Source: Thiorhodococcus drewsii AZ1 (GTDB lineage: Bacteria; Pseudomonadota; Gammaproteobacteria; Chromatiales; Chromatiaceae). From it: 64,000 nucleotides of DNA. The stretch is taken from contig NZ_AFWT01000002.1 of assembly GCF_000224065.1 (NCBI RefSeq), positions 186,001 to 250,000 on the forward strand, written 5' to 3'. Shown in pieces: positions 31,755 to 49,149 of this stretch. The first letter of the stretch is position 1; every line of letters starts with the position of its first letter. The notes beneath the pieces are model-generated. The model was given only the letters and a program-made list of their open reading frames with translations, ran no database searches and was not told the DNA's origin. Position numbers and translations under genes: made by a program.

Positions 31755-32477
31755 ATGACCGAACAGTATCCCAACGTCGATCGCGCCGAAATCAGCAAGT
31801 TCGAGGAACTCGCCTCGCGCTGGTGGGATCCGCACAGCGAATTCAAGACACTGCACGACATCAACCCGCTGCGTCTCGACTACATCGAGCGCGGCGCCGA
31901 CGGGCTGGCCGGCAAACGCGTCCTGGACGTCGGCTGCGGCGGCGGCATCCTGTCCGAAAGCATGGCACTCCAAGGCGCCACGGTGACCGGCATCGACATG
32001 GGCGACATGCCGCTGCGCGTCGCCGAGCTGCACACCTTGGAGACCGGCGTGGAGGTCGAGTACCGCCGCGTCCCGGTCGAGGTTCTCGCCGACGAGCTGC
32101 CAGGGGCCTTCGACGTGGTCACCTGCATGGAGATGCTGGAACACGTCCCCAACCCGGCCTCCGTGATCGGCGCCTGCGCCCGACTGGTCCGTCCGGGCGG
32201 CAAGGTCTTCTTCTCCACGCTCAACCGCAACGCCAAGTCCTATCTGATGGCCGTCGTCGGGGCCGAATACATCATGCGCATGCTGCCGCGCGGCACCCAC
32301 GACTTCTCGCGCTTCATCCGCCCGTCCGAACTCGACGCCTGGGTCCGACCGACCGAGCTGCGCACCATCAACATGAGCGGCATGAGCTACAACCCGCTGA
32401 CCCAGACCTACCGGCTCGACCCGCACAACCTGGAGGTCAACTATCTGGTCACCTGCGTGCGCGACACCGATGCCTGA
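31755..32477 (+). CDS. ubiG: Ubiquinone biosynthesis O-methyltransferase UbiG
   Basis: A 240-residue SAM-dependent methyltransferase for both O-methylations in ubiquinone synthesis. It has the family start ([14 protein letters not shown]...[15 protein letters not shown]), the SAM motif [13 protein letters not shown] (near 56-68), the acidic end of motif II in [17 protein letters not shown], and the terminal block with NPLTQTYRL and VNYLVTC. Length matches E. coli UbiG (240). The stop overlaps the next gene by 8 bp, indicating an operon. Confidence 0.97.
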
Positions 32478-33156
32478 GCGCTCAGCCGTACGTGACGGCG
32501 CGGTGCTCTTCGACCTCGACGGCACCTTCGCCGACACAGCCCCAGACATGGCCGCCGCGCTCGACCGGCTGCACGCGCGTCACAGCAAACCGGTGCTGCC
32601 CTTCGAGCAGGTCCGCCCGTACGTCTCGCACGGGGCGCGCGGCATGCTCCAGGTCGGCTTCGGCCTGACGCCGGAGGACCCCGACTTCGAGCCACTGAAG
32701 ACCGAATTCCTGGAGCTCTATACCGCCGCCCTGGTCGAGCGCACCCGGCCCTTCCCCGGCATTCCCGAGCTGGTCGATGCGCTCGAAGCACGCGGCATTC
32801 CCTGGGGCATCGTCACCAACAAGCTGACCGCCCTCACCGAGCCACTGATGGAGCAACTCGGCTTTCGCGAGCGTGCCGCCTGCATCGTCTGCGGCGACAC
32901 CACGCCCCGACCCAAGCCGCATCCGGACCCACTGCTGCACGCCGCCCGCCTGCTCGGAATCGAGCCGGCCCGCTGCTGGTACATCGGCGACGACGCACGC
33001 GACATCCATGCCGGACTCGCCGCCGGCATGGGCACGCTCGCCGCACTCTTCGGCTATCTCGGCACCGAAACCGCACCAACCGACTGGGGCGCGCACGGAC
33101 TCATCGCCCACCCGCTGGAGACGCTCGACTGGCTGTCCGCACCCATCGACTCATGA
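32470..33156 (+). CDS. mupP: HAD phosphatase, MupP/Gph family (MurNAc-6-phosphate or phosphoglycolate phosphatase)
   Basis: A 228-residue HAD hydrolase. Motif I is [14 protein letters not shown] (nucleophile Asp), motif II is the GIVTNK segment near 113, motif III lies around RPKPHPDP, and motif IV is YIGDDARDI. It overlaps ubiG by 8 bp and the next gene by 4 bp. In pseudomonads and relatives the HAD gene between ubiG and yciK is MupP, the N-acetylmuramic acid 6-phosphate phosphatase of peptidoglycan recycling; here yciK follows after one extra gene, supporting that name. Gph (phosphoglycolate phosphatase) is the alternative. Confidence 0.85.
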
Positions 33157-33983
33157 CGGAAACAGCACCTGAAGAGCGCTGGGGCTTCCCCAACGCGGCC
33201 ACCCCGCCCGGCTCTTCCAGCTATTACAGCCTGCGCTTCGCGCCAGCGCCTCTGCGTCACGACCTGGCCGTTCTCTGCGCCTGGCGTCACGAGATCGCCA
33301 CCACGCCCGACCAGGTCAGCGAACCCCAGGTCGCCGCCGCCAAACTCGACTGGTGGTCGCACGAACTGGAACGCAGCCTCGACGGCACCGCGCGGCATCC
33401 GCTGACCCGACAACTGACCTCCGTGCGCGAGCGCCATGCACTGCCAGCCGAGCCATTGCGTGAGCTGCTCGCCAGCGCGGTCGAGCGCCTCTCGCCAACG
33501 CAGCCGAACGACTTCACCGCCCTCGCAGCCGAGGCGAAGCAGGATCTGGGAGCGCTCTTCGAGCTGATCGCACACTGTCACGGCCAAACCGATCCGAGCG
33601 CCATCGACGCCGCCCGCCAACTCGGTACCTACTGCGGTCTGGTCGAAGGCATCCGAGACAGCGGCTGGTCGCTGCGCCGAGGCCGTCACGGATGTCTGAC
33701 CAACGACCGCCTCGCCGAGGCGGGCCTCGACCGGCACCGGATCCGACTCACCGAGCACGAGACCCAGCTACGCGCCCTACTCGCCCGCATCGCCGAGGAC
33801 GCACAGACCCTGCGCGCCCACATCGCCCCGAGCAGCGCGACCCTGCCGAGAACGCTCCGCATCCGCGCCCGACTGAGCGACCTGCTCCTGACCGAGCTAG
33901 CATCCAGCGGATTCGACGTCCTGAACCAACGCATCGCGCTCACCCCTATCCTCAAACTCTGGCATGCCTGGCGTGAGCGCTGA
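33153..33983 (+). CDS. Squalene/phytoene synthase-like protein, probably divergent
   Basis: A 276-residue helical protein. The start SSYYSLRFAPAPLRHDLAVLCAWRHEI aligns in style with trans-isoprenyl diphosphate synthases of the squalene/phytoene type (SFYxA...LP...R.A..ALYAFCR.iDD). Instead of the first Asp-rich motif it has HEIATTPDQVS, and the second half has QLGTYCGLVEGIRDSGWSLRRG in place of the usual D-V-x-E-D. Both metal sites therefore appear changed, so catalysis may be lost or altered. ATGA overlap with mupP places it in the ubiG operon. A chaperone-like role, as proposed for the mitochondrial NDUFAF6 relatives, is one possibility. Confidence 0.72.
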   Translation: MTETAPEERWGFPNAATPPGSSSYYSLRFAPAPLRHDLAVLCAWRHEIATTPDQVSEPQVAAAKLDWWSHELERSLDGTARHPLTRQLTSVRERHALPAEPLRELLASAVERLSPTQPNDFTALAAEAKQDLGALFELIAHCHGQTDPSAIDAARQLGTYCGLVEGIRDSGWSLRRGRHGCLTNDRLAEAGLDRHRIRLTEHETQLRALLARIAEDAQTLRAHIAPSSATLPRTLRIRARLSDLLLTELASSGFDVLNQRIALTPILKLWHAWRER

Positions 33984-34191
33984 TTCGGAACCGTTCGAAA
34001 CCAAGAAGACTCAAAGACACGCGTCGCTGGCCGCTCCAAGGCGGACCATGCATCCCGATTTTTAAAGCCGATCATCACCACCAGCCGGACCGAGCCGATC
34101 GATCCGGCATCACACCAACCGACTCGAACGGGGTCAGGGCGAGAGCCGATCCCGATCGGGTGATAGTTCGCAAGACGAGGATCATCCAGCA

Positions 34192-34977
34192 ATGGATCAA
34201 TCGAGCACTCAATCAAACACTCCATCGAACGATCGCGGCCAACGGCTCAACGAGCGGGTCATCCTGGTCACGGGCGCGCTCGAAGGCATCGGACGCGCCG
34301 TCGCACTAGCCTGCGCGGCCGAGGGGGCGACAGTGATCCTGTCCTCCTTCGAGGAGGTCGACCTGGAGCCGGTCTACGATGCCATCGTCGCCAACGGCGG
34401 ACCCGAGCCCGCCATCCTGCCGCTGAACCTGCAGACGGCCAGCGAACGCGATTTCATCGCCGCTGCCGACATCGTCGCCGACACCTTCGAGCGGCTCGAC
34501 GGCCTGGTCCATTGCGCCGCCTCGGCGCCCTTCCTCAGCCGTATCGACGACTATGACACCAACGAATGGGAGGGCGTCATTCGAGTCAACCTCACCGCGC
34601 CCTTCATGCTGACCCAGGCGTGCATGCCTATCCTGCGTCTGTCCAAGGACGCCTCTATCGTCTTCACCTCGGACCGGGTCGGTCGCACCGGCATGGCCTA
34701 TTGGGGTGCCTATGCCGCCGCCAAATTCGGCATCGAGGGTCTGATGCAGGTGCTGGCCGACGAGACGCGCGACAGCAGCCACATCCGGGTCAACAGTCTC
34801 GACCCCGGAATCCTGCGCACCGCCCTGCGCGCCAGCCTCTATCCCGGCGAGGATCCCTCCACCCTTCCGGCTCCCGAGACGGTCACCGAAGCCTACATCC
34901 AGCTTTTGAGCGCGGAATCCCAGGGCATGACCGGCAAGCGTTGCAGCGTCGATGCCACGACGGGTCGACTGACCTGA
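34192..34977 (+). CDS. yciK: YciK-type short-chain dehydrogenase
   Basis: A 261-residue SDR. It has the nucleotide motif TGALEGIGRA near 29-38, a structural VHCAAS in place of NNAG near 105, IVFTSD (Ser) and YAAAK (the catalytic Tyr/Lys, near 183-187), followed by VNSLDPGILRTALR. The sequence matches the YciK family, whose substrate is unknown. Its position after ubiG-mupP (one gene and 208 bp removed) repeats the order known from other gammaproteobacteria. A polar N-terminal extension of about 18 residues suggests that a later start is possible. Confidence 0.88.
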   Translation: MDQSSTQSNTPSNDRGQRLNERVILVTGALEGIGRAVALACAAEGATVILSSFEEVDLEPVYDAIVANGGPEPAILPLNLQTASERDFIAAADIVADTFERLDGLVHCAASAPFLSRIDDYDTNEWEGVIRVNLTAPFMLTQACMPILRLSKDASIVFTSDRVGRTGMAYWGAYAAAKFGIEGLMQVLADETRDSSHIRVNSLDPGILRTALRASLYPGEDPSTLPAPETVTEAYIQLLSAESQGMTGKRCSVDATTGRLT

Positions 34978-34990
34978 GCCACAGGAATCC

Positions 34991-35018
34991 GGCGCGCCCG
35001 GCCACGCCGGTGCGCGCC
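34991..35018. terminator. GC-rich hairpin between convergent genes
   Basis: Arms GGCGCGCCCGGC and GCCGGTGCGCGCC pair with a single bulge and a very short loop. The hairpin sits exactly between yciK (+) and the amidohydrolase gene (-). There is no T-run, so it may act as a bidirectional but imperfect terminator. Confidence 0.5.
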
Positions 35019-35025
35019 CCCTGCT

Positions 35026-35811
35026 TCAATATCGCTCTTCCAGCGTACCAACGGACGCATACAGCGAAGCCAACCGACTCACCCACGCCTCGATCTGCGT
35101 GGGCGTTTCCACCACGTCCTGACGGATCTCGATCATGGCATGCGGAAGCCCTCGGCGCTCGCCGTGTCTGGTCAGGGTGTAATCGTGGCTATCCTCGATC
35201 GCGTAGGGAAAGTTATCTCCGACGACCAGATCCTCGTGCACCGCGAGTCCCCGCAGCAGACGTTTGGCGAGTCGCGGATCGCGTCCGTGGGCGATCCCGA
35301 TGTGCCAGGAGCGGCGCTCGCCATCGAGTTGGGGCGTGAAGCTATGGAGCGCGATGAGGCAGGTCGCGGGATCCGCATGGGCGTCGAGCCAGGCGGCGAT
35401 GGCCTGGTGATAGGGCCAGAACAGCGTCGCGAGTCGTTGCTCTCGGGCCGCCTGGTCCAGGTTCCGGTTTCCGGGAATCGGAACCCCGTCACTACGCTCC
35501 GGGATCAGTTCCGCGCTTTCCAATGGGCGATTGAGATCGACCACCAGACGCGAATAGCCGCCCAGGATCAGCGGGGCATCAAGTCGCTCCGCAAGTCCTC
35601 TGGCAACCGCCGCCGCGCCGGGATCCCAGGCGATATGCTCGCCCAGACGCTCGGGTGCCAGGCCAAGACCCGCGAGTCGTTTGGGGATCCGATTGGAGGC
35701 GTGATCGCAGACCAGCAAAAGCCGCGCCGTCCCGTGCGGATTGACCAGCTCGAACGCAGGCGGCTCATCGGGGTCGAGCACGCGCGCCCCTTCCGCTGAA
35801 TCGCCGCTCAT
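35026..35811 (-). CDS. N-formylglutamate amidohydrolase family protein
   Basis: A 261-residue predicted metal-dependent amidohydrolase. Motifs: LLVCDHASNRIP near 32-43, HIAWDPGAAAVARGLAERL, GGYSRLVVDLNRP and LIALHSFTP (metal His), with DDYTLTRHGERRGLPHAMIEIRQD-type sequence near 215-235. Family members hydrolyse N-formylglutamate or related amides; the exact substrate is unknown. The 5' end overlaps the end of the transglutaminase gene by 4 bp (ATGA), so the two are cotranscribed. Confidence 0.88.
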   Translation of the reverse strand: MSGDSAEGARVLDPDEPPAFELVNPHGTARLLLVCDHASNRIPKRLAGLGLAPERLGEHIAWDPGAAAVARGLAERLDAPLILGGYSRLVVDLNRPLESAELIPERSDGVPIPGNRNLDQAAREQRLATLFWPYHQAIAAWLDAHADPATCLIALHSFTPQLDGERRSWHIGIAHGRDPRLAKRLLRGLAVHEDLVVGDNFPYAIEDSHDYTLTRHGERRGLPHAMIEIRQDVVETPTQIEAWVSRLASLYASVGTLEERY

Positions 35812-36626
35812 GCGCCGCCCGCCACCACCTCATCGGACCAGACGCGGAAGCTCTTCAGGGTATTCGGACCAAAGGCGTTGCTGAGCGGCACATCGGCCGC
35901 GTCACGGCCCTGGGCGATCAGAACCCGTCCGATACGGGGCACCAGATTGCGCGGATCCAGGGTGTGCCAGCGCCCGCCCAGATAGACCTCGAGCCAGGCG
36001 GAGAAGTCCATGGGCTCGGGGGCGGGCGGCACGCCGATATCGCCCAGATAGCCGGTGCAGTAACGCGCGGGGATGTTCATGCAGCGACAGAAGGTGATGG
36101 CAAGATGGGTATAGTCGCGGCAGACGCCAGCCTTCTCCTGAAAGGCTTCGAGCGCGGTCTTGGTGGCGCGGGCGTACTGATAGCCGAAGGTGATGTGCTG
36201 ATGGACGAAATCACTGATCGCCTGCACGCGCGGCCACCCCGGAGGCGTCTTTTCGAACAGCGACCAGGCGATCTCCGAGAGGCGGTCGGTCTCGCAGTAG
36301 CGGCTCCCCTGCAGATAGACCAGGGTCTCGCTGGGCAGGTCCTCGACCGCATGCTGGACGGCTGTCGTATCGACCGCATCGAACAGACCGCTATCGTTGA
36401 TGATGGTGTCGGTGCTGATGCGGATATCCCCAGGAGGCGCGACGAGACGGCTGCACCAATTGCCGAATCCGTCGCGATAGGCGATGACCGGAACCGCTGG
36501 CTGGGTGACGACATGGTCGGGGGCGACCAGATCGGACGCCCGACTGTAGTGGACGTTCAGTGTCAGGATCATGGGCGTGCGCTGAGGGCACGTATAGACC
36601 ATCTCGTAGCCCAGTCGAATCTGCAT
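35808..36626 (-). CDS. Transglutaminase-like cysteine protease family protein
   Basis: A 272-residue protein. An N-terminal beta domain (LNVHYSRASDLVAPDHV...GNWCSRLVAPPG) precedes the transglutaminase core with the nucleophile in AGVCRDYTHLAITFCR (near 168-183) and the catalytic Asp in WHTLDPRN (near 226-233). The usual His position is occupied by Ser (MDFSAWLEVYLGG), verified from the DNA. Such genes often occur next to amidohydrolases or circularly permuted ATP-grasp proteins. Transcribed first in a two-gene operon with the amidohydrolase; the function is unknown. Confidence 0.85.
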   Translation of the reverse strand: MQIRLGYEMVYTCPQRTPMILTLNVHYSRASDLVAPDHVVTQPAVPVIAYRDGFGNWCSRLVAPPGDIRISTDTIINDSGLFDAVDTTAVQHAVEDLPSETLVYLQGSRYCETDRLSEIAWSLFEKTPPGWPRVQAISDFVHQHITFGYQYARATKTALEAFQEKAGVCRDYTHLAITFCRCMNIPARYCTGYLGDIGVPPAPEPMDFSAWLEVYLGGRWHTLDPRNLVPRIGRVLIAQGRDAADVPLSNAFGPNTLKSFRVWSDEVVAGGA

Positions 36627-36841: not shown

Positions 36842-37159
36842 ATGGACGACACACTCAAGCGATTGCTCGACGCCGAGATGCGCGCGGAACAGATCGCTCA
36901 GCAAGCCGAAGCGGAACAGGAACGCATCATCCAGAAGGCCATCGCCGACGCCAAGTCGGAGAACGAACGCTTCACGGCTCGGATTCCGGATCTGCATCGC
37001 TCCTTCATCGCCAAGTCGGAGGAAAAGGCGGAGCAGACCATCGCCGAGCTCAGACGCCGCTACGACGAACGCCACATCCAGCTCAGGGACCAGGCGGAGC
37101 AGCGCGAAGAGGCGGCCCTGGAGACGGCCTTCCAGATCCTGACCGGGGTCGAGCGCTGA
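36842..37159 (+). CDS. A/V-type ATPase peripheral-stalk subunit G/H
   Basis: A 105-residue, almost entirely helical, charged protein (LDAEMRAEQIAQQAEAEQERIIQKA, then ERRY-type heptads), typical of the coiled-coil peripheral stalk partner of subunit E. It is the first gene of the ATPase operon, 4 bp before subunit C, with a 215-bp divergent spacer upstream. Sequence alone would not fix the name; the operon does. Confidence 0.8.
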   Translation: MDDTLKRLLDAEMRAEQIAQQAEAEQERIIQKAIADAKSENERFTARIPDLHRSFIAKSEEKAEQTIAELRRRYDERHIQLRDQAEQREEAALETAFQILTGVER

Positions 37160-37163
37160 CGCC

Positions 37164-38225
37164 ATGAGCGACGTCGCAGATCAGGCCTATCTCAACACGC
37201 GCGTATCGGTGATGGCCACGCGGCTCTTCCCGCCCGACCTCGCCGAACAACTCATCCAGATGCCCTTGCCCGCGCTGGCCGAGCGTTTCGGATTGACCGC
37301 CCTACTCGACGAGCAGCACACGACCGCCGCTCGCAGCCGCGCCGTCGAACAGAGCCTGATCTGGCTGCTGATGACCGAGCTTCAGATCCTGATCCGCCCC
37401 ATGAAGTCCGCCGAGCGCGGCCTGCTGCTGGCCTGGGGACGCAAGTACGCGCTCTTCAATCTCAAAACGCTGATCCGGGGCAAGCTCTACGAACTGGACC
37501 AGAAGGACATCGGCGACAATCTCTACGACCTGCCCGAGAGCATCCGGCTACCCGACCGGGCGCTGTTCGGGGCCGAGAACGTCCTGGAGATGCTGCGCCA
37601 GCTTGAGGCAGGCCCGCATCACCGGATCGCGCGCCAGGCGCGCGAGGTCTACGAGCAGCAACGCGAGCCCTTCGCCCTGGAAGCTACAGTCGATCAGCAC
37701 TATTTCGCCGATCTGGCACACCGCATCCTCACCTTTGACAGCCACCAGCAGGCCTCGCTGCGCCGTCTCATCGGTGTCGAGCTAGACCGGACCGCACTGC
37801 TCTGGATGCTGCGTTTCCGCTTCTCCTATCAGCTTTCGCCGTCCGAGACCTTCTACCAGCTCGTGCCCTCGCCCCGTCTGCTGACCCGCGAGCGCCTGCT
37901 GAATCTGGTGAACCTGGAAAACCTGGAACGTATCTTGGAATCACTCCCAGAACCTCTGAACCAAACGATGGCCGACTGCCGAACCATCGCGGACGTGCAG
38001 CGGCGCATGGAGCTTCACACCCAACGCGAAATCCGCTGGCTCTTGGCGCGCAGCCCGTCCGGCGTCGCCCGGGCGCTGGCCTATTTGATGCTCCGAGAGG
38101 CCGATCTGATGCGACTGTTCGCCGTGGTTCAGGGACGACTGCTCGGGTTTCCGAACGACCGGGTCGAGATGGCGCTCAACCTCATCGACCCGGAATGCGC
38201 CACAGGCGCGGGCCAAGCCGCCTGA
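37164..38225 (+). CDS. A/V-type ATPase subunit C (V0d/AC39-like)
   Basis: A 353-residue soluble, helical protein of the V-ATPase AC39/C family, which links the central rotor to the membrane c-ring. It begins YLNTRVSVMATRLFPP and contains the family's recurring three-part repeat (WGRKYALFNLKTLIRGKLYEL, then YYF-x-A-x-x-I and LRFRFSYQLSPSETFYQLVP). It is closely packed with subunit G (4 bp) and subunit I (55 bp). Confidence 0.87.
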   Translation: MSDVADQAYLNTRVSVMATRLFPPDLAEQLIQMPLPALAERFGLTALLDEQHTTAARSRAVEQSLIWLLMTELQILIRPMKSAERGLLLAWGRKYALFNLKTLIRGKLYELDQKDIGDNLYDLPESIRLPDRALFGAENVLEMLRQLEAGPHHRIARQAREVYEQQREPFALEATVDQHYFADLAHRILTFDSHQQASLRRLIGVELDRTALLWMLRFRFSYQLSPSETFYQLVPSPRLLTRERLLNLVNLENLERILESLPEPLNQTMADCRTIADVQRRMELHTQREIRWLLARSPSGVARALAYLMLREADLMRLFAVVQGRLLGFPNDRVEMALNLIDPECATGAGQAA

Positions 38226-38280
38226 GGCGGGAGCGACACCAGTCGGACGCCAACCAACCATCGGATAAAGAGACCCAGCT

Positions 38281-40173
38281 ATGTTGAGGCCCATGCCAAT
38301 GAAGCACGTCCGCCTACTGGTTCTGACCGAGAACCTGCCGCAGGCGTCTCTGGCCCTGGCCGAAACCGAGAGCTTCCACCCGGACACGCGTCCGCCGACC
38401 GAGACTCAGCTCGCCGGCCTGCCCGGACGCGAGTACCGCGAGGTCTTCATTCAGGCCAAGTCGCGTCTGGACAAGATCGTCCGGCACATCCCGCTCGATC
38501 CCGTCGCCGAGATCGCGCCCATCCGGGTGATCGATGCCGAGGAACTCATCCAACTCAACGATTGGCTCGGCCCGCTCTGGGACGAGACCTCCGGTTACGA
38601 GGAGGACTTCCGCCTGCTCGACGACGAGGAACGGCTGGTCAAGGAACAGCAGGCGGCGCTGGCCAACTTCGCCGAGCTCAATATCGACCTGGGAATGCTG
38701 CAAACCAAGACGCGCTTCCTCGATATCCATATCGGCCTGGTCCCGCGCGAAAACCTGCGTCAACTGGAGGGCGCCGTCGGTCTGGCCCATCACATCCTGC
38801 ATGTCTACATGCAGCAGGACGACAACGCCCACGTGGTCATCGTCGGCCCCAAGGGTGACAAGGAATCCACGCTGACGACCGTTCTATCGGCGGCCGGATT
38901 CCAACGGCTGCCGATCCCGCAGGGACTCGACCGTCCCCCGGCCGAGCTGCAACGCGAGCTGGCGGCGCGACTCAACGGCATCGAAGAGCAGCGCCGCACA
39001 CTGGAGGAGACGCTGGTTCGCTGGAGCGCCCCTCAGCGCCCCAAACTGATCGAGGCTCGGCACACCCTCCTGCTGGCCGAGCCGTTGGTGGAACTGGACG
39101 CCTCGCTGCGTAGCGCCGGACATCTGGCGCACCTGGCCGGCTGGGTTCCCGCGCGCGCCGTCGAACGCCTGAAGCAGCGCCTGAGCAAGACGCTCGACCA
39201 ACCCTTCGATCTGACCCTGCGCGATCCGCTCCCCGAGGAACGTCCGCTGGTTCCAACCGTCGCCTCCAAGAACCGACTCCTGATCCCATTCGCCATGCTG
39301 GTCGATCAATACGGCATCCCATCCTATGGCGAGGTGGACCCAACGCCCCTGTTCGCCATCACCTTCCTGCTCATGTTCGGCAGCATGTTCGGCGATCTCG
39401 GACAGGGCGCGGTCATTGCCGGTGCCGCCTTCCTGGCACGTCGCAAGCTCGGACGCTTCTGGCTGTTCGGTCTGCTGGCCGGATTCGCCTCGATGGGCTT
39501 CGGACTCGTCTACGGCAGCGTCTTCGGCTATGAGCACGTCCTGCCGGCGCTCTGGATGAGCCCGCTCAGCGACCCCCTGCTGATGCTCTCCATCGCGCTC
39601 GTCTGGGGCGTGATCTTCATCACCACCGCCTGTCTGCTGGCCATCTACAACCGTCTCGTCATCCGCAACTGGTCGGGTGCGCTGTTCGGACACCACGGCG
39701 TCGTCAACCTGATCTTCTATCTGGCGCTCGTCGCCGGCGGCCTGGAGGTGGCGCGCGGCGGGGGAATCGGCATCCACACCGTCGTTCTGGTCGCCGGCTC
39801 GCTCGCCGCGCTGGCCTGGCACAGCTGGCGGCACCAGGACGGTGGACTGGGCGAAAAGATCCTGGTCGTCTTCATCGAAACCCTGGAGACCGTCATCGGC
39901 TATGTCTCCAACACGCTGTCCTTCCTGCGTGTTGCGGCCTTCAGCCTCAACCATGTCGCGCTCTCCATCGCCGTCTTCACACTGGCGGACATGATGGGCG
40001 CCTTCGGGCATGTGGTCACCGTCATCCTGGGCAACCTCTTCGTCCTGGTACTGGAGGGAGGCATCGTCATGATTCAGGTGATGCGTCTGCAATATTACGA
40101 AGGATTCTCGCGCTATTTCTCAGGGGATGGGCACGCCTTCAAACCGCTGCGTTTCCGTCGCGGCTTCTCGTGA
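38281..40173 (+). CDS. A/V-type ATPase membrane subunit I (a-subunit)
   Basis: A 630-residue two-part protein. The cytoplasmic N-terminal half (1-330) is helical and begins MKHVRLLVL, followed by about seven or eight membrane helices. Family hallmarks include PTPLFAITFLLMFGSMFGDLGQG, where subunit I carries its first conserved TM block, FGYEHVLPALWMSP, and the essential stretch GYVSNTLSFLRVAAFSLNHVALS with the arginine that faces the c-ring (near 540). It forms the ion half-channels. The start could also be an in-frame ATG at 38293 or 38299. Confidence 0.93.
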   Translation: MLRPMPMKHVRLLVLTENLPQASLALAETESFHPDTRPPTETQLAGLPGREYREVFIQAKSRLDKIVRHIPLDPVAEIAPIRVIDAEELIQLNDWLGPLWDETSGYEEDFRLLDDEERLVKEQQAALANFAELNIDLGMLQTKTRFLDIHIGLVPRENLRQLEGAVGLAHHILHVYMQQDDNAHVVIVGPKGDKESTLTTVLSAAGFQRLPIPQGLDRPPAELQRELAARLNGIEEQRRTLEETLVRWSAPQRPKLIEARHTLLLAEPLVELDASLRSAGHLAHLAGWVPARAVERLKQRLSKTLDQPFDLTLRDPLPEERPLVPTVASKNRLLIPFAMLVDQYGIPSYGEVDPTPLFAITFLLMFGSMFGDLGQGAVIAGAAFLARRKLGRFWLFGLLAGFASMGFGLVYGSVFGYEHVLPALWMSPLSDPLLMLSIALVWGVIFITTACLLAIYNRLVIRNWSGALFGHHGVVNLIFYLALVAGGLEVARGGGIGIHTVVLVAGSLAALAWHSWRHQDGGLGEKILVVFIETLETVIGYVSNTLSFLRVAAFSLNHVALSIAVFTLADMMGAFGHVVTVILGNLFVLVLEGGIVMIQVMRLQYYEGFSRYFSGDGHAFKPLRFRRGFS

Positions 40174-40243
40174 TGAAACGCCCAGCCCGGCAACACACGT
40201 TCAACAGCAACCTCGCCACTCACATATGACTTTGGAGCTCACC

Positions 40244-40699
40244 ATGTACTGGCTCGTCGCCCTCATGTCCGTCGCCATTCTCGGCCTGATCGTCTCCGGA
40301 CTCTATCTGGAATGGCGCCCACGCTTCGTCACCTCGATTCGCGGCTGGTACAAGCCAGCCCTCGGAACCCAACTGGTCGTCTTCGTCGGCGCCCAGCTCG
40401 CACTGCTGATACTTGGGATCAACGACGTCCTGGCCAGCCCGGAGACCGCAGGCGCGGCGGCGGAGGGGCTCAAGGAGATGTCCACCGGCATGGGTCTGGC
40501 CATCATCGGTGCGGGCATTCCGACCGGTCTCTCGACCATCGGCGCCGGCATCGCCGTCGGCCCCATCGGTGCCGCATCGCTCGCGGCCATCACCGAAAAG
40601 CCCGAGAACCTGGGCCGCACGCTCATCTATCTGGGCCTGGCCGAGGGTATCGCCATCTACGGCCTGGTCATCTCGATCCTGCTGCTCAACAAGATTTGA
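40244..40699 (+). CDS. A/V-type ATPase proteolipid subunit K (c-ring)
   Basis: A 151-residue protein with four membrane helices. The C-terminal hairpin is classical: GAGIPTGLSTIGAGIAVGPIGAASLAAITEKPE, then LGLAEGIAIYGLVISILLL with the ion-binding Glu. The N-terminal hairpin lacks such a residue, so one site serves per four helices. A GGAG lies 7 nt before the ATG at 40244; an ATG at 40226 lacks one. Whether it carries H+ or Na+ cannot be decided safely from this sequence. Confidence 0.92.
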   Translation: MYWLVALMSVAILGLIVSGLYLEWRPRFVTSIRGWYKPALGTQLVVFVGAQLALLILGINDVLASPETAGAAAEGLKEMSTGMGLAIIGAGIPTGLSTIGAGIAVGPIGAASLAAITEKPENLGRTLIYLGLAEGIAIYGLVISILLLNKI

Positions 40700-40753
40700 G
40701 CCGGCCGCACGATTTGAGCCAGTCAACAGGATCCGAGCCGGACACAGCCTAAG

Positions 40754-41125
40754 ATGGATACCCACCAGGACCTGAGTCACCCGACCCGCATGCTGTTCCT
40801 CGGCGAGGGTCGGCTCGCGGACGGCTTCCGCCTGATCGGTTTCGAGGTCCACCCGGATCCCTCGCCCGAGGAGGTCGATCGCATCTTCCGCGACCTGCAG
40901 CGCACGCGCGAGCGGACCTTCGTCATCGTCGACGACGCCATCATGGGTCAAAACATCCCGCATCTGCAGCAGGCCCGACGCGAGGGCGGTCGCATCCTGG
41001 TGATCGCGGTGCCGGCGCTCAACGCGCCGCCAACGCTCTCCAGCGATGTGGCTCGGCGTCTGGCGGCCCTCTTCGGCGCCGCCGCACTCGAATCCAGTCA
41101 AACCGGAGAGCGAGAACCACAGTGA
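40754..41125 (+). CDS. A/V-type ATPase subunit F
   Basis: A 123-residue Rossmann-like small subunit. It has MLFLGEGRLADGFRLIGFEV near the start, then RTFVIVDDAIMGQNIPHL and ILVIAVPAL, matching the regulatory F subunit of the central rotor. It has about ten more residues at the N-terminus than the minimal fold. It ends in a GTGA overlap with subunit E. Confidence 0.87.
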   Translation: MDTHQDLSHPTRMLFLGEGRLADGFRLIGFEVHPDPSPEEVDRIFRDLQRTRERTFVIVDDAIMGQNIPHLQQARREGGRILVIAVPALNAPPTLSSDVARRLAALFGAAALESSQTGEREPQ

Positions 41126-41769
41126 ATCAGGTAGACGAACTGGAACGAGCCATTCTGGCCCGCGCCGAGCGCCTGGCCAGCGAATACCACGAGCGCGCCG
41201 GACACAGCCGCGACAGCATCCTGCGCGATGCCGCCGAACGTCTGCGTCTGCGCGAGGCGCGCGAGGAAGCCATCGCCAAGTCGCTCGGCGAACGCGCCTT
41301 CCACCAACGGGTGCAGGCCAGCGAGCTCAAGATGCAGACCCATCTCGACCGCATGCGCTGGAATCTGGTGCAGGGCGTCGAACGGCGCCTCACCGATCGC
41401 ATGCGACGGTTCATGGAGGACGAGGCGCAATACGACGCCTGGCTCGACAGTCTCATTCTCAACGCCGTCACGATCATCGAGGGCGATCGGCTCGTGGTCT
41501 CGGCCAACAACCAGGACCAGCACCGCCTCCATGCGCGCTGGGAGCAGATTCGCCCGTCGCTCCCGACCGACAAGACCGTCGAGCTGGCCTCCAGCGCGCA
41601 CGCCATCGATACGCTCGCCGGTGTGCTGGTCACCAGCCACGACAGCCGGATCCGGGTCGACCAGACCTTCGAGGGCCGGCTCGACCGGCTGCGCCCCAAG
41701 ATCCAGCAGACCATTCTCGAACGCCTGCTTCCCGGCGGGTTCGACACTGCCAACCTCTTTACCGGATGA
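41122..41769 (+). CDS. A/V-type ATPase peripheral-stalk subunit E
   Basis: A 215-residue protein starting with GTG that overlaps the stop of subunit F. The first 100 residues form a charged helix (LERAILARAERLASEYHERAGHSRD), and the C-terminal half is a globular alpha/beta domain (GVLVTSHDSRIRVDQTFEGRLDRLRP...ILERLL) as in vacuolar and archaeal E subunits. It pairs with subunit G as a peripheral stator and is 4 bp from the A subunit gene. Confidence 0.88.
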   Translation: MNQVDELERAILARAERLASEYHERAGHSRDSILRDAAERLRLREAREEAIAKSLGERAFHQRVQASELKMQTHLDRMRWNLVQGVERRLTDRMRRFMEDEAQYDAWLDSLILNAVTIIEGDRLVVSANNQDQHRLHARWEQIRPSLPTDKTVELASSAHAIDTLAGVLVTSHDSRIRVDQTFEGRLDRLRPKIQQTILERLLPGGFDTANLFTG

Positions 41770-41773
41770 GAGC

Positions 41774-43579
41774 ATGAACGAAGCGAACAGAGTCGGCGTC
41801 ATCCGCGACATCAACGGCCCCATCGTCACCATCGAGCTGCCCGGCGTGCGCAGCGGCGAGCAGGTCAAGATCGGCGAACTGGGGCTCTTCGGCGAGGTCA
41901 TCTCGCTGCGCGGCCAGGAGGCCGTGGTCCAGACCTACGAATCGACCGACGGGGTGCGACCCGGCGAACCCGCGATCGGCATCGGCTGGCCGCTCTCGGT
42001 CGAGCTGGGTCCCGGACTCATGGGCGGCATCTTCGACGGGGTGCAGCGTCCGCTGTCCAAGATCGCGCTCGAATCGGGCGATTACATCCGCCGCGGCATC
42101 TCCATTCCGGCGCTGGATCGCTCCAAGCAGTGGGAGTTCGAGCGCACAGCAGGACTAGAGGCCGGCGCCAAGATCAGCCCAGGCACGGTGCTCGGCACGG
42201 TCCAGGAAACCCAGACCATCCTCCACCGCATCCTGGTGCCGCCGGGCGTCGAGGGTGAGCTGGAAGAGATCGCCCCGTCCGGCGACTACGATATCGAGTC
42301 CACCATCGCCCGGGTACGCGACGCCAAGGGCAACGACCACCGGCTGAGCATGTATCAGCGCTGGCCGGTACGCAAACCACGCCCCTATCTGCGTCGCGAC
42401 GACGGCATCGCGCCGCTCATCACCGGCCAGCGCGTCATCGACAGCTTCTTTCCCCAGCTCAAGGGCGGCAAGGGCGCCGTACCCGGCCCCTTCGGCGCCG
42501 GCAAAACCGTGGTCCAGCAGCAGATCGCCCGCTGGTCCAACGCCGACATCGTCATCTATGTCGGCTGCGGCGAACGCGGCAACGAGCTGGTCGACGTGCT
42601 CGAAACCTTCCCCCAGCTCGACGACCCCTACACCGGCCGCAAGCTGATGGAGCGCACCCTACTGGTCGCCAACACCTCCAACATGCCGGTGGTGGCGCGC
42701 GAGGCGTCGGTCTATGTCGGCATGACCATGGCCGAGTACTACCGCGACATGGGCTACGACGTGGTCATGCTCGCCGACTCCACCAGCCGCTGGGCCGAGG
42801 CCCTGCGCGAGGTCTCGGGCCGGCTCGGCCAGATGCCGGTCGAGGAAGGCTATCCGGCCTATCTCGCCTCCCGCCTCGCCGCCATCTACGAGCGTGCCGG
42901 CCGGGTCGAGACCTACAACGCCGGCTCCGGCTCGGTTACCCTCATCGGCGCCGTCTCCCCGCCCGGCGGCGACTTCTCCGAGCCCGTCACCAGCCACACC
43001 AAGGACATCATCGAGACCTTCTGGGCGCTCTCCAAAGAGCTGGCCGACGCCCGTCACTATCCATCCATCGACTGGGTCACCAGCTTCTCCGGACACGTCC
43101 ACACCGCCGCCCAGTGGTGGCACACGGAGGTCGATCCGAACTGGGAACAACGCCGCGCCGCCGCCCTCGCCCTCCTCGCCCGCGACGCCGAACTCTCGCG
43201 CATCGTCAACCTGGTCGGCCCAGAGGCGCTCTCCGATGCCCAGCGTTGGGAGTTGGAAGGCGCCTCGCTCATCAAGGAAGGCGTATTGCAACAAAGCGCG
43301 CTCGATGACATCGACACCTTCTGCTCGCCCGTCAAACAGTTCGCGCTGCTGGATCTGGCTATTGGGATCTACCGCAGTGGGGAATCGCTGATTCAACTCG
43401 GCGTCCCCGTCACCGAACTCCAAAACCTGCCGCTCCTGGCCAAAATGCGCAGGATCAAATCCATGTATTCGAGCGATCAGCTAGACCAAATCCAGGCGTT
43501 TCGGAAAGAGGTCGAGAAGACGATGGAAGGGATTCGAATTGAATATGCGAAGCATGAAGGGGAAACGGAAGTGGAATAG
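41774..43579 (+). CDS. A/V-type ATPase catalytic subunit A
   Basis: A 601-residue catalytic subunit. The N-terminal beta-barrel begins GVIRDINGPIVTIELPG; the bulge domain lies around residues 110-190; the P-loop is GPFGAGKTV near 240; and Walker B and the Arg region include VVMLADSTSRWAEALREVSGRLGQMPVEEGYPAYL. The C-terminal helical domain is complete (DDIDTFCSPVKQF...MRRIKSMYS). It therefore binds and hydrolyses or makes ATP, but only together with the regulatory B subunit. No B or D gene follows: after the stop at 43579 comes a convergent acyltransferase gene and mobile DNA. Confidence 0.95.
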   Translation: MNEANRVGVIRDINGPIVTIELPGVRSGEQVKIGELGLFGEVISLRGQEAVVQTYESTDGVRPGEPAIGIGWPLSVELGPGLMGGIFDGVQRPLSKIALESGDYIRRGISIPALDRSKQWEFERTAGLEAGAKISPGTVLGTVQETQTILHRILVPPGVEGELEEIAPSGDYDIESTIARVRDAKGNDHRLSMYQRWPVRKPRPYLRRDDGIAPLITGQRVIDSFFPQLKGGKGAVPGPFGAGKTVVQQQIARWSNADIVIYVGCGERGNELVDVLETFPQLDDPYTGRKLMERTLLVANTSNMPVVAREASVYVGMTMAEYYRDMGYDVVMLADSTSRWAEALREVSGRLGQMPVEEGYPAYLASRLAAIYERAGRVETYNAGSGSVTLIGAVSPPGGDFSEPVTSHTKDIIETFWALSKELADARHYPSIDWVTSFSGHVHTAAQWWHTEVDPNWEQRRAAALALLARDAELSRIVNLVGPEALSDAQRWELEGASLIKEGVLQQSALDDIDTFCSPVKQFALLDLAIGIYRSGESLIQLGVPVTELQNLPLLAKMRRIKSMYSSDQLDQIQAFRKEVEKTMEGIRIEYAKHEGETEVE

Positions 43580-43617
43580 GGGGCTTGACACGGACTTATG
43601 ATCAAGGCTTTATTGCT

Positions 43618-44634
43618 TCAACGCCCTCCAAGCATAAATTTCATTGTTTTTGGGAACTTACGATAACCATATAAATAGACAGGAACCATCATCAAAGCAA
43701 TAATTAAGGGAGCCGAAAACCAATATGCCCAGTAGGGCACATCAGGAACAATTTTTTGATAAATAATCCATAGCGTAAGCAGCATTGGCCCTTGCGCCAA
43801 GAAGGTCAGAAAACTGTATTTAGCTAATCCAGCAATCCAGACGCCAAACTTGGTGTTAACAATCAGCGAACACGCTGGCCAAATCAGAATAGGCGAAACA
43901 AGCCTGAGGTAGTTTCTGTTTTCTATTTGAAAAGCAACAATAGCGAAGCAAAATAGCAAGAACATTACAAAAAGCATTAAGGCATATTTATCCAGCTTTC
44001 TCATATCCCACTCAAGAATAGCTGCCATTCCGCCAACATAAAACAAAATAGGCATAGTATTTCTAAGAACAATGTTGCCATCAAAATTAAACCAGAATAT
44101 TAATAACGTAATTAGAAGCCCCGTCCAAGCAAGTTTTCTAATCAATAATCCAAAAATAGGCGCAAGTATTGATATTACATATAAGTCTCTTAAGAAATTC
44201 AGCGGGTAATTTATTGGGCTTCCAAATAATCCAATTATTGCATCTAACCAGACAAAAAAGTTGAAGGGATATAGTTTTTGCGAAAAATCATGATCTAGGA
44301 GCTGATATGCTTGTACGGTATAAACAATTAATGCGATAGGCAAATTAAATAAGACAAGTGGAACAAGTATCGTTCTTGTTTTTTTGGACAGAAGAGCGCT
44401 ATATCTCAAGTCAAGATTCGCGCTAAATAATAGATATCCGGAAATAAAGGTAAGAACAGGAACGGATGTCCGAAAAATAGCATGTTGGAACGTTGCTTTA
44501 AGAAAATCAAAAGCAGATGCTCCAGTTTCTGTAAGAGGTATATATGGCGGCGCGTGAAGAACAATAATCCCAAAGATCATAATGTAACGTAATATGTTGA
44601 TTCTTTGGCTGATTTCAGGGTCAAGCTTACTCAT
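43618..44634 (-). CDS. Acyltransferase family 3-like membrane protein (OafA/ExoH type)
   Basis: A 338-residue polytopic protein with about ten membrane helices. It has the family signature near the N-terminus (RINILRYIMIFGIIVLHAPPY, with the catalytic-type His), FRTSVPVLTFISGYLLF, and an FLAQGPMLLTLW segment in the late helices. Members transfer acetyl or succinyl groups to polysaccharides or lipids. The base composition is strikingly AT-rich compared with everything to the left, and no partner genes are near, which marks it as recently transferred. It lies between the broken ATPase operon and the attC-borne intron. Confidence 0.85.
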   Translation of the reverse strand: MSKLDPEISQRINILRYIMIFGIIVLHAPPYIPLTETGASAFDFLKATFQHAIFRTSVPVLTFISGYLLFSANLDLRYSALLSKKTRTILVPLVLFNLPIALIVYTVQAYQLLDHDFSQKLYPFNFFVWLDAIIGLFGSPINYPLNFLRDLYVISILAPIFGLLIRKLAWTGLLITLLIFWFNFDGNIVLRNTMPILFYVGGMAAILEWDMRKLDKYALMLFVMFLLFCFAIVAFQIENRNYLRLVSPILIWPACSLIVNTKFGVWIAGLAKYSFLTFLAQGPMLLTLWIIYQKIVPDVPYWAYWFSAPLIIALMMVPVYLYGYRKFPKTMKFMLGGR

Positions 44635-44730: not shown

Positions 44731-46733
44731 ATCGGGTAAGGGCGGGTATTTAGCCCGCCCTCCCCACACCACCTAGCATGCGGGTCCGCACTAGGCGGTT
44801 CACGAGAAGGAAGCACACGAGGACTTCAGGCATAGCCATGCGCTTTCATCCACTGATCGCGAATGCTGATCAAGCCCTGGTCTTTCAGCCAGTCATTGGT
44901 CATCCCGGTTTGCGTGCCCAGCGACCGGGACAGATGCCAGTAGCTCTTGGAGCTCATGCCCGTCCAGATCGCGGTCCGTATCCGTGTCCCCAGAGCCCTC
45001 AGCTGGCGAATGCGATTGCGCACCCCGCGCCACTGTTTCCAGTAGCACATGCGGATGCGTCGCCGCAGCCAGTGGTCCAGCTCGGGGATCGGCCGGTAAT
45101 AGTCCGAGATGCCGAAGTAGCCCATCCAACCACGGACGTATTCGGCGAGCTTCTTGAGCCGGTAGTCCATGGACACGCCCCAACTCCGTCCGGTCAGCTT
45201 ACGCAGCCGGTGGCGGAAGTCCTGGTAGGCGCGCTCGGACCAGCGCAGTTTCTTGCCCCGGAAGGTGAATCCCAGGAACACGCCGTCGTCGGTCTTGACC
45301 ACGCGGCTCTTCTGCTCATTGACCACCAGCTTGAGCGTGCCAGTCAGGTAGCGAGACACGCTCGCCATGACCCGCTCGCCCGCACGGTGGCTTCGGACGA
45401 GGATCAGCAGGTCGTCCGCGTAGCGGACGAACCGATGCCCCCGTCGCTCCAGTTCCTTGTCGAGGTCATCCAAGAGGATATTGGCCAGCAACGGCGACAG
45501 TGGCCCGCCTTGCGGCGTGCCGATCTCCGTTGCTTCGATGGTTTCCCCAACCAAGACACCCGCCCGCAGATACGCACCAATCAGCGCCAGCAGCCGCTTG
45601 TCGCGCACCTTCCGACCCACGCGGGCCATCAGGACGTCGTGCCGGACCGTGTCGAAGAACTTCGCCAGGTCCAGGTCAACCGCGATGCAGTAGCCCTCGC
45701 CAATGTAGGTTTGTACCCGCCTCAATGCTCCGTGGGCGGAGCGCCCTGGTCGGAAGCCGAAGCTCGCATCCGAGAACTCTGGATCGAAGATCGGCCCCAG
45801 AACTTGCGCGATGGCTTGTTGGATAACGCGATCCATCACCGTCGGGATGCCGAGCCGACGCTCGCCACCGTTCGGCTTGGGAATCGTCACCCGTCTGACC
45901 GGCTGTGGCCGGTAGCTGCCCTCGCGCAGGGCTTGGCGGATCGCTGGCAGGCTCGAACGTGCGAACTCGGGAAAGTCCTCGATGCGCATCCCATCCATAC
46001 CGGGCGCACCTTTGTTGGCCTTCACGCGCATCCATGCCCGTCGCATGTTCTCGCTCTCCAGCACCCGCTCCATCAGGTCGTCGTGCAAGGCTGGCTGCGT
46101 GGCATCGCGCCGTCCCATGTCTCCCCCGAGCGGGTTCGTCGACAGGGGCAAGCGATCCACGGCTCCGCCTTGACTTCTCATGTTCGGCCCTTCGCCACGC
46201 GCCCGCTCCACGGTTGCACGGCTACTATGGCCTCGGCTGACTTCTGTCCCGTCACGCCGCGCGTTGCCGCCCGACGCGCTGTCCGAGTCACGGTAAGGTC
46301 CGGTGGTGATTCCAGCGCTTTCGCGCTGGCCCTCAGTCCGGCTCCCCTGGCGACCACAGCACCCGTAGGGTTCGATGGCAATTCCAACCCTTTCGGACTG
46401 GGCCTCAGTTCGACTCCCATAGCCACACGGACCGCTCGCAAGACAGATCTCCCCGGATAAGGACATGAACTTTCTCTGCACAACCTCGCCATTTACCGTA
46501 CCCACGTCGGATCACCGGGCTTCGCTATCTGTGGCTAGCTCGCCCCCGGGCTCGGCCTTCTATGACGTTTCTGTTCGTAGGCTCGCAGATTTGCTCCAGG
46601 CTTCCTTCAGACCTCGCCTCGCGGCTCGGCCCTTGCCCTTCGCTAGTAGTTTTCGCCTGATCAGAGACCAGACGGTGATCCTCCTACAGGGGACTCGCAC
46701 CCCATCAGTTCATGCCCATGCCGGGCGTACCAC
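44731..46733 (-). mobile_element. Group II intron (bacterial class C-attC type) encoding a reverse transcriptase
   Basis: On the minus strand the 3' end shows a domain V-like hairpin (GAACCGCCTAGTGCGGACCC...GCATGCTAGGTGGT), a domain VI hairpin GGGCGGGCTAAATACCCGCCC and an end at about CCCGAT. The 5' region begins near GTGGTACGCCC and has the domain I stretch GGGGTGCGAGTCCCC. Ends are given to within 1-2 nt. The 3' exon TATGC and 5' exon GGCGTT together rebuild the core of an integron attC site, the known target of class C-attC introns. The encoded protein lacks an endonuclease domain, as in class C. Confidence 0.85.
44826..46181 (-). CDS. ltrA: Group II intron reverse transcriptase/maturase
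   Basis: A 451-residue protein from the preferred ATG (46181); the frame stays open upstream to 46505 but that part overlaps the intron's structured RNA. RT blocks: NKGAPGMDGM (block 0/1), IPKPNGGERRLGIPTVMDRVIQQAI (block 2), GFRPGRSAHGAL, VDLDLAKFFDTV, GTPQGGPLSPLLANI, and the catalytic RYADDLLIL. The maturase X domain is seen as LAEYVRGWMGYFG with RRRIRMCYWKQW. No HNH endonuclease domain follows. It supports splicing and retrohoming of its host intron. Confidence 0.93.
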   Translation of the reverse strand: MRSQGGAVDRLPLSTNPLGGDMGRRDATQPALHDDLMERVLESENMRRAWMRVKANKGAPGMDGMRIEDFPEFARSSLPAIRQALREGSYRPQPVRRVTIPKPNGGERRLGIPTVMDRVIQQAIAQVLGPIFDPEFSDASFGFRPGRSAHGALRRVQTYIGEGYCIAVDLDLAKFFDTVRHDVLMARVGRKVRDKRLLALIGAYLRAGVLVGETIEATEIGTPQGGPLSPLLANILLDDLDKELERRGHRFVRYADDLLILVRSHRAGERVMASVSRYLTGTLKLVVNEQKSRVVKTDDGVFLGFTFRGKKLRWSERAYQDFRHRLRKLTGRSWGVSMDYRLKKLAEYVRGWMGYFGISDYYRPIPELDHWLRRRIRMCYWKQWRGVRNRIRQLRALGTRIRTAIWTGMSSKSYWHLSRSLGTQTGMTNDWLKDQGLISIRDQWMKAHGYA

Positions 46734-48157: not shown

Positions 48158-49149
48158 ATGACTAGCGGCTATCCTCAATTTCACCGATCTGCGCAGATGG
48201 GCGAGCGCGGGGTCAACGTAGTCTCTCGAATAGTCAATGAAACTCTCGGTTGGCTCTTCAAGCGAAACCATCAAGAGCATGACTTCGGCGTTGACGGGCA
48301 AATCGAAGTAATTACGCCCAGCGGCTCCGTTACTGGTCAGATGCTTGCCGTGCAAATCAAGTATGGAAAGTCATTCTTTCAAGAGAAAAACCGTTGGGGT
48401 TACGTCTACCGCGGCGAACTCAAGCACTTCAACTATCTGTCGAATTACCCAGTTCCGTTTCTTATCGTTATCTGCCATCCCGAATCTGAAGAATGCTAAC
48501 TGAAGCTGCATGGAAGATGACTATTCCCTTCGGAAACAAGCTTCACGAGGCGAAAGGTGCAATTGAGGAGATGCTTCCTCCCCTTCAAGATAGCCTTTCA
48601 GACCTTCAAGCGTACTGGGCGATCAACAACCTAATGGTCGAGTCGTCATACATCCACTTCATTATTGATCGTCCCGAAGTAAAGGCGCTTGATGTGACCC
48701 GTCCAAGGGAATTCTTCGACCGCCTTCGGATAACAAAGGAGTTGGCCTATCAGTGCCAAGGTAAGGTCGAGATAAGTTTTCACGGCTACGAAAACGATGC
48801 TCACGAGCTATTTGTGATAGACGAAGTGCGTAACTACGTTCCATTGCTATGTGCTGCGCTACCTGAGTTGTTATTCTTCTCGCGAACAGAAGAACCCACT
48901 CACGCCCTTAAGACGTTAGCCCTGTGTCAGACCCGCGTTAGTTGGCCCGACGGGCGCTCTACCAGGGAGGTGACTCGGAAGGTAATCTTCGATACAGACA
49001 AGGTCGGGGAATTCATCATGCGTCACTGGCCTGGACTCAACGAGATGACTGAGTGGCTATCCATGTCCATTGACGAAAACAAGAGAATTTCGTTCGATGT
49101 AATTCGCTGTCTCGGGCTTCGAGTTCCTACGGAGGCCGATGATGCATAA
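48158..49149 (+). pseudogene. DUF4365-domain gene broken by a frameshift or small deletion
   Basis: The first part (48158-48499) encodes the DUF4365 start (GERGVNVVSRIVNETLGWLF...HDFGVDGQIEV...GQMLAVQIKYGKSF...YPVPFLIVICHPESEEC) and stops. The frame -1 relative to it continues at 48493 with TEAAWKMTIPFGNKL and runs to 49149, as expected for the rest of one protein of about 320 residues. The junction (48488-48497) appears to lack about a dozen residues. DUF4365 domains resemble restriction-type nucleases. The gene starts 4 bp after an attC core and ends in the next attC, so it is an integron cassette gene. Confidence 0.8.

What the first reader, a model, noticed from the sequence alone, without database searches (positions are those of the whole stretch)
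36842..43617. A/V-type ATPase operon that ends after subunit A, with B and D missing
Seen: G, C, I, K, F, E and A genes are intact and tightly packed, but the expected B and D genes are not in the window; 38 bp after the A stop an AT-rich acyltransferase gene and mobile DNA begin. Known: the enzyme cannot work without B (stator ring) and D (rotor shaft). Inference: insertion or rearrangement by the island removed or displaced them, leaving a dead or split operon.
Basis: partly seen in the sequence, partly recalled or inferred. Interest (0 to 1): 0.66.

Follow-up and report, generated by a model that had tools for sequence, protein, structure and literature searches.

The report
Rotary ATPase operon split in two
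A purple sulfur bacterium keeps the genes of one rotary ion-pumping enzyme in two distant places; the two 'missing' genes are intact elsewhere in the genome, so the operon looks split rather than dead, as it is in many of its relatives.

Summary
In detail: G-C-I-K-F-E-A ends at 43579, and no B or D follows. The "dead" reading fails. The same genome carries an open B and D on another contig (C130:46800-48179 and 48459-49082), far from contig ends, with a small overlapping CxxCxxCC gene between them. This B is 95% identical to the B lying 1.7 kb after A in Thiorhodococcus mannitoliphagus. dN/dS is 0.08-0.48 across the ten genes.
The break looks older than the island. Of 74 family genomes with A at least 79% identical, A-B-D is tight in 6; of 60 more distant ones, in 51. 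In the 14-row clade holding the window, 9 of 9 scorable members have A and B apart; 5 cannot be scored. Relatives show intermediates with cargo genes (Uma2, DUF6398, toxins, a transposase) between A and B. Related Uma2 genes lie after A in one species and before B in another; a decayed Uma2 tail lies before B here.
Best reading: one V/A-ATPase encoded in trans by two units, split by cargo insertion and then rearrangement. Expression is untested. New variant of a known kind.

The parts
36842..37159 (+). subunit G (peripheral stalk)
   Evidence: Pfam V-ATPase_G 2.7e-4, 21.9 bits, below the cut-off of 28.6; similar gene first in the operon in many relatives
37164..38225 (+). subunit C (AC39)
   Evidence: Pfam vATP-synt_AC39 1.4e-48
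38281..40173 (+). subunit I (membrane stator)
   Evidence: Pfam V_ATPase_I 3.7e-32
40226..40699 (+). subunit K (proteolipid ring)
   Evidence: Pfam ATP-synt_C 5.4e-17; start taken at the first Met after the I stop
40754..41125 (+). subunit F
   Evidence: Pfam ATP-synt_F 3.8e-6, 27.6 bits over the cut-off of 23.5
41122..41769 (+). subunit E (peripheral stalk)
   Evidence: Pfam vATP-synt_E 8.8e-17
41774..43579 (+). subunit A (catalytic), last gene of this half; B and D are on G000:C130:46800-48179 and 48459-49082, outside the window
   Evidence: Pfam ATP-synt_ab 4e-75, Xtn and VA_C domains; Walker A motif GPFGAGKT; B and D found
43580..43617 (.). 38 bp between the A stop and the convergent acyltransferase: the A-side breakpoint; no terminator-like site found
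   Evidence: similarity to I. purpurea stops within a few bases of the A stop (by eye)
43618..44634 (-). acyltransferase gene, foreign composition, edge of the mobile DNA
   Evidence: Pfam Acyl_transf_3 1e-17; GC3 0.34

Best explanation
This is one V/A-type rotary ATPase encoded by two gene groups in trans: G-C-I-K-F-E-A in the window, and B-(CxxCxxCC gene)-D on contig C130. Shown: both halves are present, open, under purifying selection, and vary together across genomes. Inferred: both are expressed and the subunits assemble after translation. The split most likely arose in two steps (inferred). First, cargo genes (Uma2, DUF6398, toxin-antitoxin, IS) entered the A|B junction in an ancestor shared with Thiocystis, Allochromatium and Chromatium. 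Later, rearrangements broke the DNA inside that cargo, leaving B-D at another place. The island now beside A is a late arrival, or at most the agent of the last step.
For: Open B and D on C130, 46 kb and more from a contig end. B is up to 95% identical to B genes downstream of A in cis (93-95% in Thiorhodococcus, A. humboldtianum and several Thiocapsa). dN/dS: A 0.107, B 0.083, D 0.092, other subunits 0.21-0.48 against I. purpurea; three neighbouring genes 0.16-0.39. A-B, A-D and B-D distance correlations 0.86, 0.89, 0.81, each reached by 0 of 999 permutations, on 26, 23 and 24 genomes. In G033 and G102, genomes with one D, A and B are 375 kb and 828 kb apart on one contig. Tight A-B-D in 6 of 74 near relatives against 51 of 60 far ones. 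9 of 9 scorable clade members are open at A|B. Uma2 genes lie in the A-B gap of A. humboldtianum and G123 and after A in A. palmeri; a relative (54-56% identical) lies directly before B in I. purpurea; a decayed tail of that one lies before B here (79% over 99 bp, E 1e-19). A DUF6398 gene lies in the gap of Thiorhodococcus minor, and one 66% identical lies before B in I. purpurea.
Against: No expression or assembly data. No promoter-like site was found before B, nor a terminator after A (weak scans for a GC-rich genome). E, F and C have higher dN/dS (0.48, 0.36, 0.28) than in seven control pairs (0.11-0.31, 0.07-0.24, 0.09-0.26), so a mild loosening is possible. The distance correlations would also hold for unrelated genes passed on vertically. 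The Uma2 genes could be separate insertions rather than one. The genome is a 141-contig draft. I. purpurea and some others may be gap rather than split, since A and B lie near contig ends there.
Confidence: 0.86

Rival explanations
1. Dead remnant: the island deleted the end of the operon and the window genes are decaying; C130 B and D serve something else.
For: Foreign AT-rich DNA starts 38 bp after A; E, F and C have somewhat raised dN/dS.
Against: The ten genes have no stop inside and dN/dS below 0.5. At the cut-offs used the genome has one match each for this B and this D, and the second A (C116) lies with a DUF2764 gene and its own B and D. A and B are also apart in relatives with other genes after A.
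Confidence: 0.05
2. The split in this genome is a single recent displacement by the island from a tight A-B-D operon.
For: The breakpoint touches the A stop, and the gene upstream of B (a permease) was not found at E 1e-60 in the five relatives searched.
Against: The decayed Uma2 tail before B and the open A|B junction in 9 of 9 scorable clade members say that A and B were already apart.
Confidence: 0.06
3. Assembly artefact: the C130 and C140 stretches are neighbours in the real chromosome.
For: Draft of 141 contigs.
Against: A lies 27.6 kb from its contig end and B-D over 46 kb from its own; separation within one contig is seen in G033 and G102.
Confidence: 0.03

Closest known systems
Intact V/A-type ATPase operons of related Gammaproteobacteria (e.g. 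Sedimenticola, Thioalkalivibrio MAGs)
   Same: Same nine subunits in the same order G-C-I-K-F-E-A-B-D
   Different: There A-B-D are closely packed; here B-D is elsewhere with a CxxCxxCC gene between B and D
Split F-type ATP synthase operons (Rhodospirillum, Synechococcus, Cyanobacteria, Bacteroidetes; PMC5709465, passages seen)
   Same: One rotary ATPase encoded by two or more transcription units
   Different: The passages give such splits as typical of whole classes or phyla (76-98% in the groups named); here the V/A type is broken several times within one family, with intermediate states visible
Achromatium V-type ATPase operon (PMC5587575, passages seen)
   Same: V-type ATPase in a related large sulfur bacterium
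   Different: The passage calls the Achromatium V-type operon strongly conserved, in contrast to operons interrupted by transposable elements or nuclease genes (the cut passage points to its Fig. 6c, ATP synthase); here the V-type is the one broken

Membership tests
V/A-type rotary ATPase | catalytic A with V/A-specific extension and C-terminal domains and a Walker A motif | tested here: met
V/A-type rotary ATPase | B and D present in the genome | tested here: met
   C130; B 459 aa, D 207 aa
V/A-type rotary ATPase | C, I, K, E, F subunits | tested here: met
   Pfam above the cut-offs
V/A-type rotary ATPase | G subunit | tested here: inconclusive
   21.9 bits, below the cut-off of 28.6; position and conservation fit
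V/A-type rotary ATPase | assembled, working enzyme | not testable with these tools
   no expression or biochemistry
Pseudogenised (dead) operon | essential genes absent from the genome | tested here: not met
Pseudogenised (dead) operon | stops, or loss of purifying selection | tested here: not met
   no stops, dN/dS below 0.5 in all ten genes; E, F and C somewhat above the control pairs
Naturally split rotary ATPase operon | A and B apart in related species too | tested here: met
Naturally split rotary ATPase operon | both units expressed together | not tested
   no transcript data at hand

The most novel reading that the evidence does not exclude
The CxxCxxCC protein whose gene overlaps B and D is an added accessory, assembly or metal/redox-sensing factor of the ATPase in purple sulfur bacteria, and its arrival between B and D opened the way for the operon to come apart. 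For: it overlaps both reading frames here, lies within 1.5 kb of B and/or D in 48 of 61 genomes that have it, and stays with D in some lineages and with B in others. Against: G022 has it with no match to this ATPase's B or D, 18 of 74 near relatives gave no match at 1e-8, and in 13 of 61 it lies away from both or could not be placed.
Probability: 0.12. Interest if true: 0.55.

Novelty: new variant of a known kind. Interest (0 to 1): 0.4.

Why it matters
PMC5709465 (passage) argues that splitting of ATP synthase transcription units by rearrangement is unlikely, because interruption would be harmful to the subunit ratio. Here one family shows a graded natural series for the V/A type: tight, cargo-filled gap, and fully separated, with at least 5 changes at A|B and 4 at B|D among the near relatives on the tree. 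This makes it testable whether gene order matters for assembling the A3B3 head and the D shaft.

Tried and rejected
Dead operon: rejected (B and D found, selection intact). A regulatory hairpin upstream of B (arms L013:9749-9762 and 9766-9779, the pattern once in the genome): set aside, because it lies in the decayed Uma2 tail and I saw no like hairpin in the 12 other upstream-of-B sequences printed (by eye). Shared upstream motif for G and B: none seen by eye. A search for one inversion joining the two flanks: the gene upstream of B was found in none, and a Kup-like gene (named by eye, window 60577-62448) in one, of five relatives searched at E 1e-60, so these flanks gave no path. dN/dS for K in two Sedimenticola pairs came out above 1.6 and was dropped as a likely frame artefact of my tblastn boundaries; one G value there had infinite dS. 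In one search I tabulated 134 of the 144 genomes that matched A; 10 were left out because their A was another type, in pieces, or not among the printed rows. B was not found in 3 of 74 near and 2 of 60 far genomes. The tree used 75 of 81 rows; 6 had under three of four subunits. 'Other contig' cases (16 of 74 for A-B) include unresolved contig ends. A|B is also open in 4 of 21 scorable far rows, so the opening is not confined to this family. Only some gap genes were sent to Pfam, not all 43 listed. Paper searches for a split V-type operon in this family: I saw none in the listings, which show titles and abstract starts; of the papers I opened I saw found passages only.

Full report
Check of the finding. 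Only G falls below its Pfam cut-off.

Where B and D are. The window is G000:C140:186001-250000. A family search of its own genome gave two D genes and eight ATP-synt_ab matches. B (C130:46800-48179) and D (C130:48459-49082) lie together. Between them is a 102-codon CxxCxxCC (PF03692) gene that overlaps B by 14 bases and D by 16. A sits 27.6 kb from its contig end and B-D over 46 kb from its own, so contig ends do not explain the separation. The other D lies in a second V-type cluster on C116, with a DUF2764 gene and its own A and B. Two ATP-synt_ab matches 1.9 kb apart on C93 are probably the F-type pair (identity by order and recall). C124 looks like the flagellar ATPase (by its neighbours, by eye). 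C133 was not examined.

Same B as in joined operons. Among 80 named loci, the B downstream of A is 93-95% identical to the C130 B in Thiorhodococcus, Allochromatium humboldtianum and several Thiocapsa. Pairwise distances of A, B and D correlate (0.86, 0.89, 0.81) across 26, 23 and 24 genomes, each reached by 0 of 999 permutations; other vertically inherited genes would do so too.

Not decaying. Against I. purpurea (G049), dN/dS is A 0.107, B 0.083, D 0.092, I 0.230, C 0.278, K 0.236, G 0.213, F 0.364, E 0.477, CxxCxxCC gene 0.277, and none of the ten genes of the window's genome has a stop inside. Three neighbouring genes gave 0.16-0.39. Seven control pairs from five lineages gave A 0.03-0.11, B 0.02-0.13, C 0.09-0.26, E 0.11-0.31 and F 0.07-0.24, and D 0.01-0.11 in the five pairs that had it. 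E, F and slightly C are therefore higher here, a result that leans mildly against full constraint.

A family-wide break-up. In 134 genomes tabulated of 194 searched, the near group (A at least 79% identical, n=74) has A-B within 150 bp in 26, 150-600 bp in 15, 0.6-10 kb in 11, over 10 kb or on the other strand in 3, on another contig in 16, and no B found in 3. B-D is within 150 bp in 8. Both junctions are tight in 6 of 74. In the far group (n=60) both are tight in 51. In G033 and G102, each with a single D, A and B lie 375 kb and 828 kb apart on one contig, with B-D together. In G138, G188 and G023, A-B is close and D lies 25-48 kb away.

Age of the split. On a tree of 75 loci, a 14-row clade (support 100) holds the window, Imhoffiella, Thiocystis, Allochromatium, Chromatium and Thiorhodococcus minor; 9 members can be scored and all 9 have A and B apart, 5 run into contig ends. 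Over the whole tree the fewest changes are 8 for A|B and 4 for B|D. Among near relatives alone they are 5 and 4; the far rows add 3 at A|B, with 4 of 21 scorable far rows open there.

How it came apart. Between A and B in relatives lie Uma2, DUF6398, ParE and HicA-type toxin genes and a DDE transposase, among the gap genes tested. Uma2 links the states: it is in the gap of A. humboldtianum and (in pieces) G123 and after A in A. palmeri; a 54-56% identical relative lies directly before B in I. purpurea, behind a DUF6398 gene whose 66% identical relative is in the gap of Thiorhodococcus minor. In the window's genome a decayed Uma2 tail lies before B (79% over 99 bp to I. purpurea, 81 bits; best of 100 shuffles 29). 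So the break probably fell inside an already filled gap, although separate Uma2 insertions are not excluded. In I. purpurea, A is 1.6 kb and B 2.3 kb from contig ends in fitting orientation, so that species may still be in the gap state.

The CxxCxxCC gene. It was found in 61 of 194 genomes at 1e-8: within 1.5 kb of both B and D in 27, of D only in 14, of B only in 7, of neither in 13. G022 has it without a match to this B or D. It is a companion by position; a role in the enzyme is open.

Function. The likely job is ion pumping or ATP synthesis beside the F-type enzyme (inference). For the related Achromatium, PMC4530308 (passages) proposes calcium transport, proton pumping or energy generation at inclusion membranes. 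In Thiodictyon syntrophicum (PMC6413534, passages) F-type subunits are abundant, and the term 'V-type' does not occur in the main text.

Verdict. The operon is split, not dead; the island is late, or at most the last agent. This is a new variant of a known kind.

Noticed in passing
G000:C116:25308-40287 (L014:3307-18287): A second, DUF2764-type V-ATPase whose B is also apart: B, then FHA-ABC transporter, Ser/Thr kinase, VWA, Gly-zipper and M48 genes (about 7 kb), then D-I-K-E-DUF2764-A (K and E read by eye), followed by an AAA-FHA protein.
   Followed up: partly
window 32470-36626; L191:8000-19999: In I. purpurea another V-type cluster (I, K, A and B by similarity, D by Pfam) stands divergent between the G gene and SDR, squalene-synthase-like and HAD genes; in the window an N-formylglutamate amidohydrolase-like and a transglutaminase-like gene stand there instead (names by eye, no family search).
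   Followed up: partly
L013:11166-11474: PF03692 CxxCxxCC gene overlapping both B and D; stays with D in some lineages and with B in others.
   Followed up: yes
L013:9677-9774: Decayed tail of a Uma2 gene just before the orphan B, carrying a hairpin found once in the genome.
   Followed up: yes
window 44778-46505: A 559-aa group II intron reverse transcriptase on the - strand with an equally long open frame (560 aa) on the + strand.
   Followed up: no
G022: A genome of the same family (completeness 99) with no match to this B or D and only a weaker A match at my cut-offs, but with the CxxCxxCC gene.
   Followed up: no
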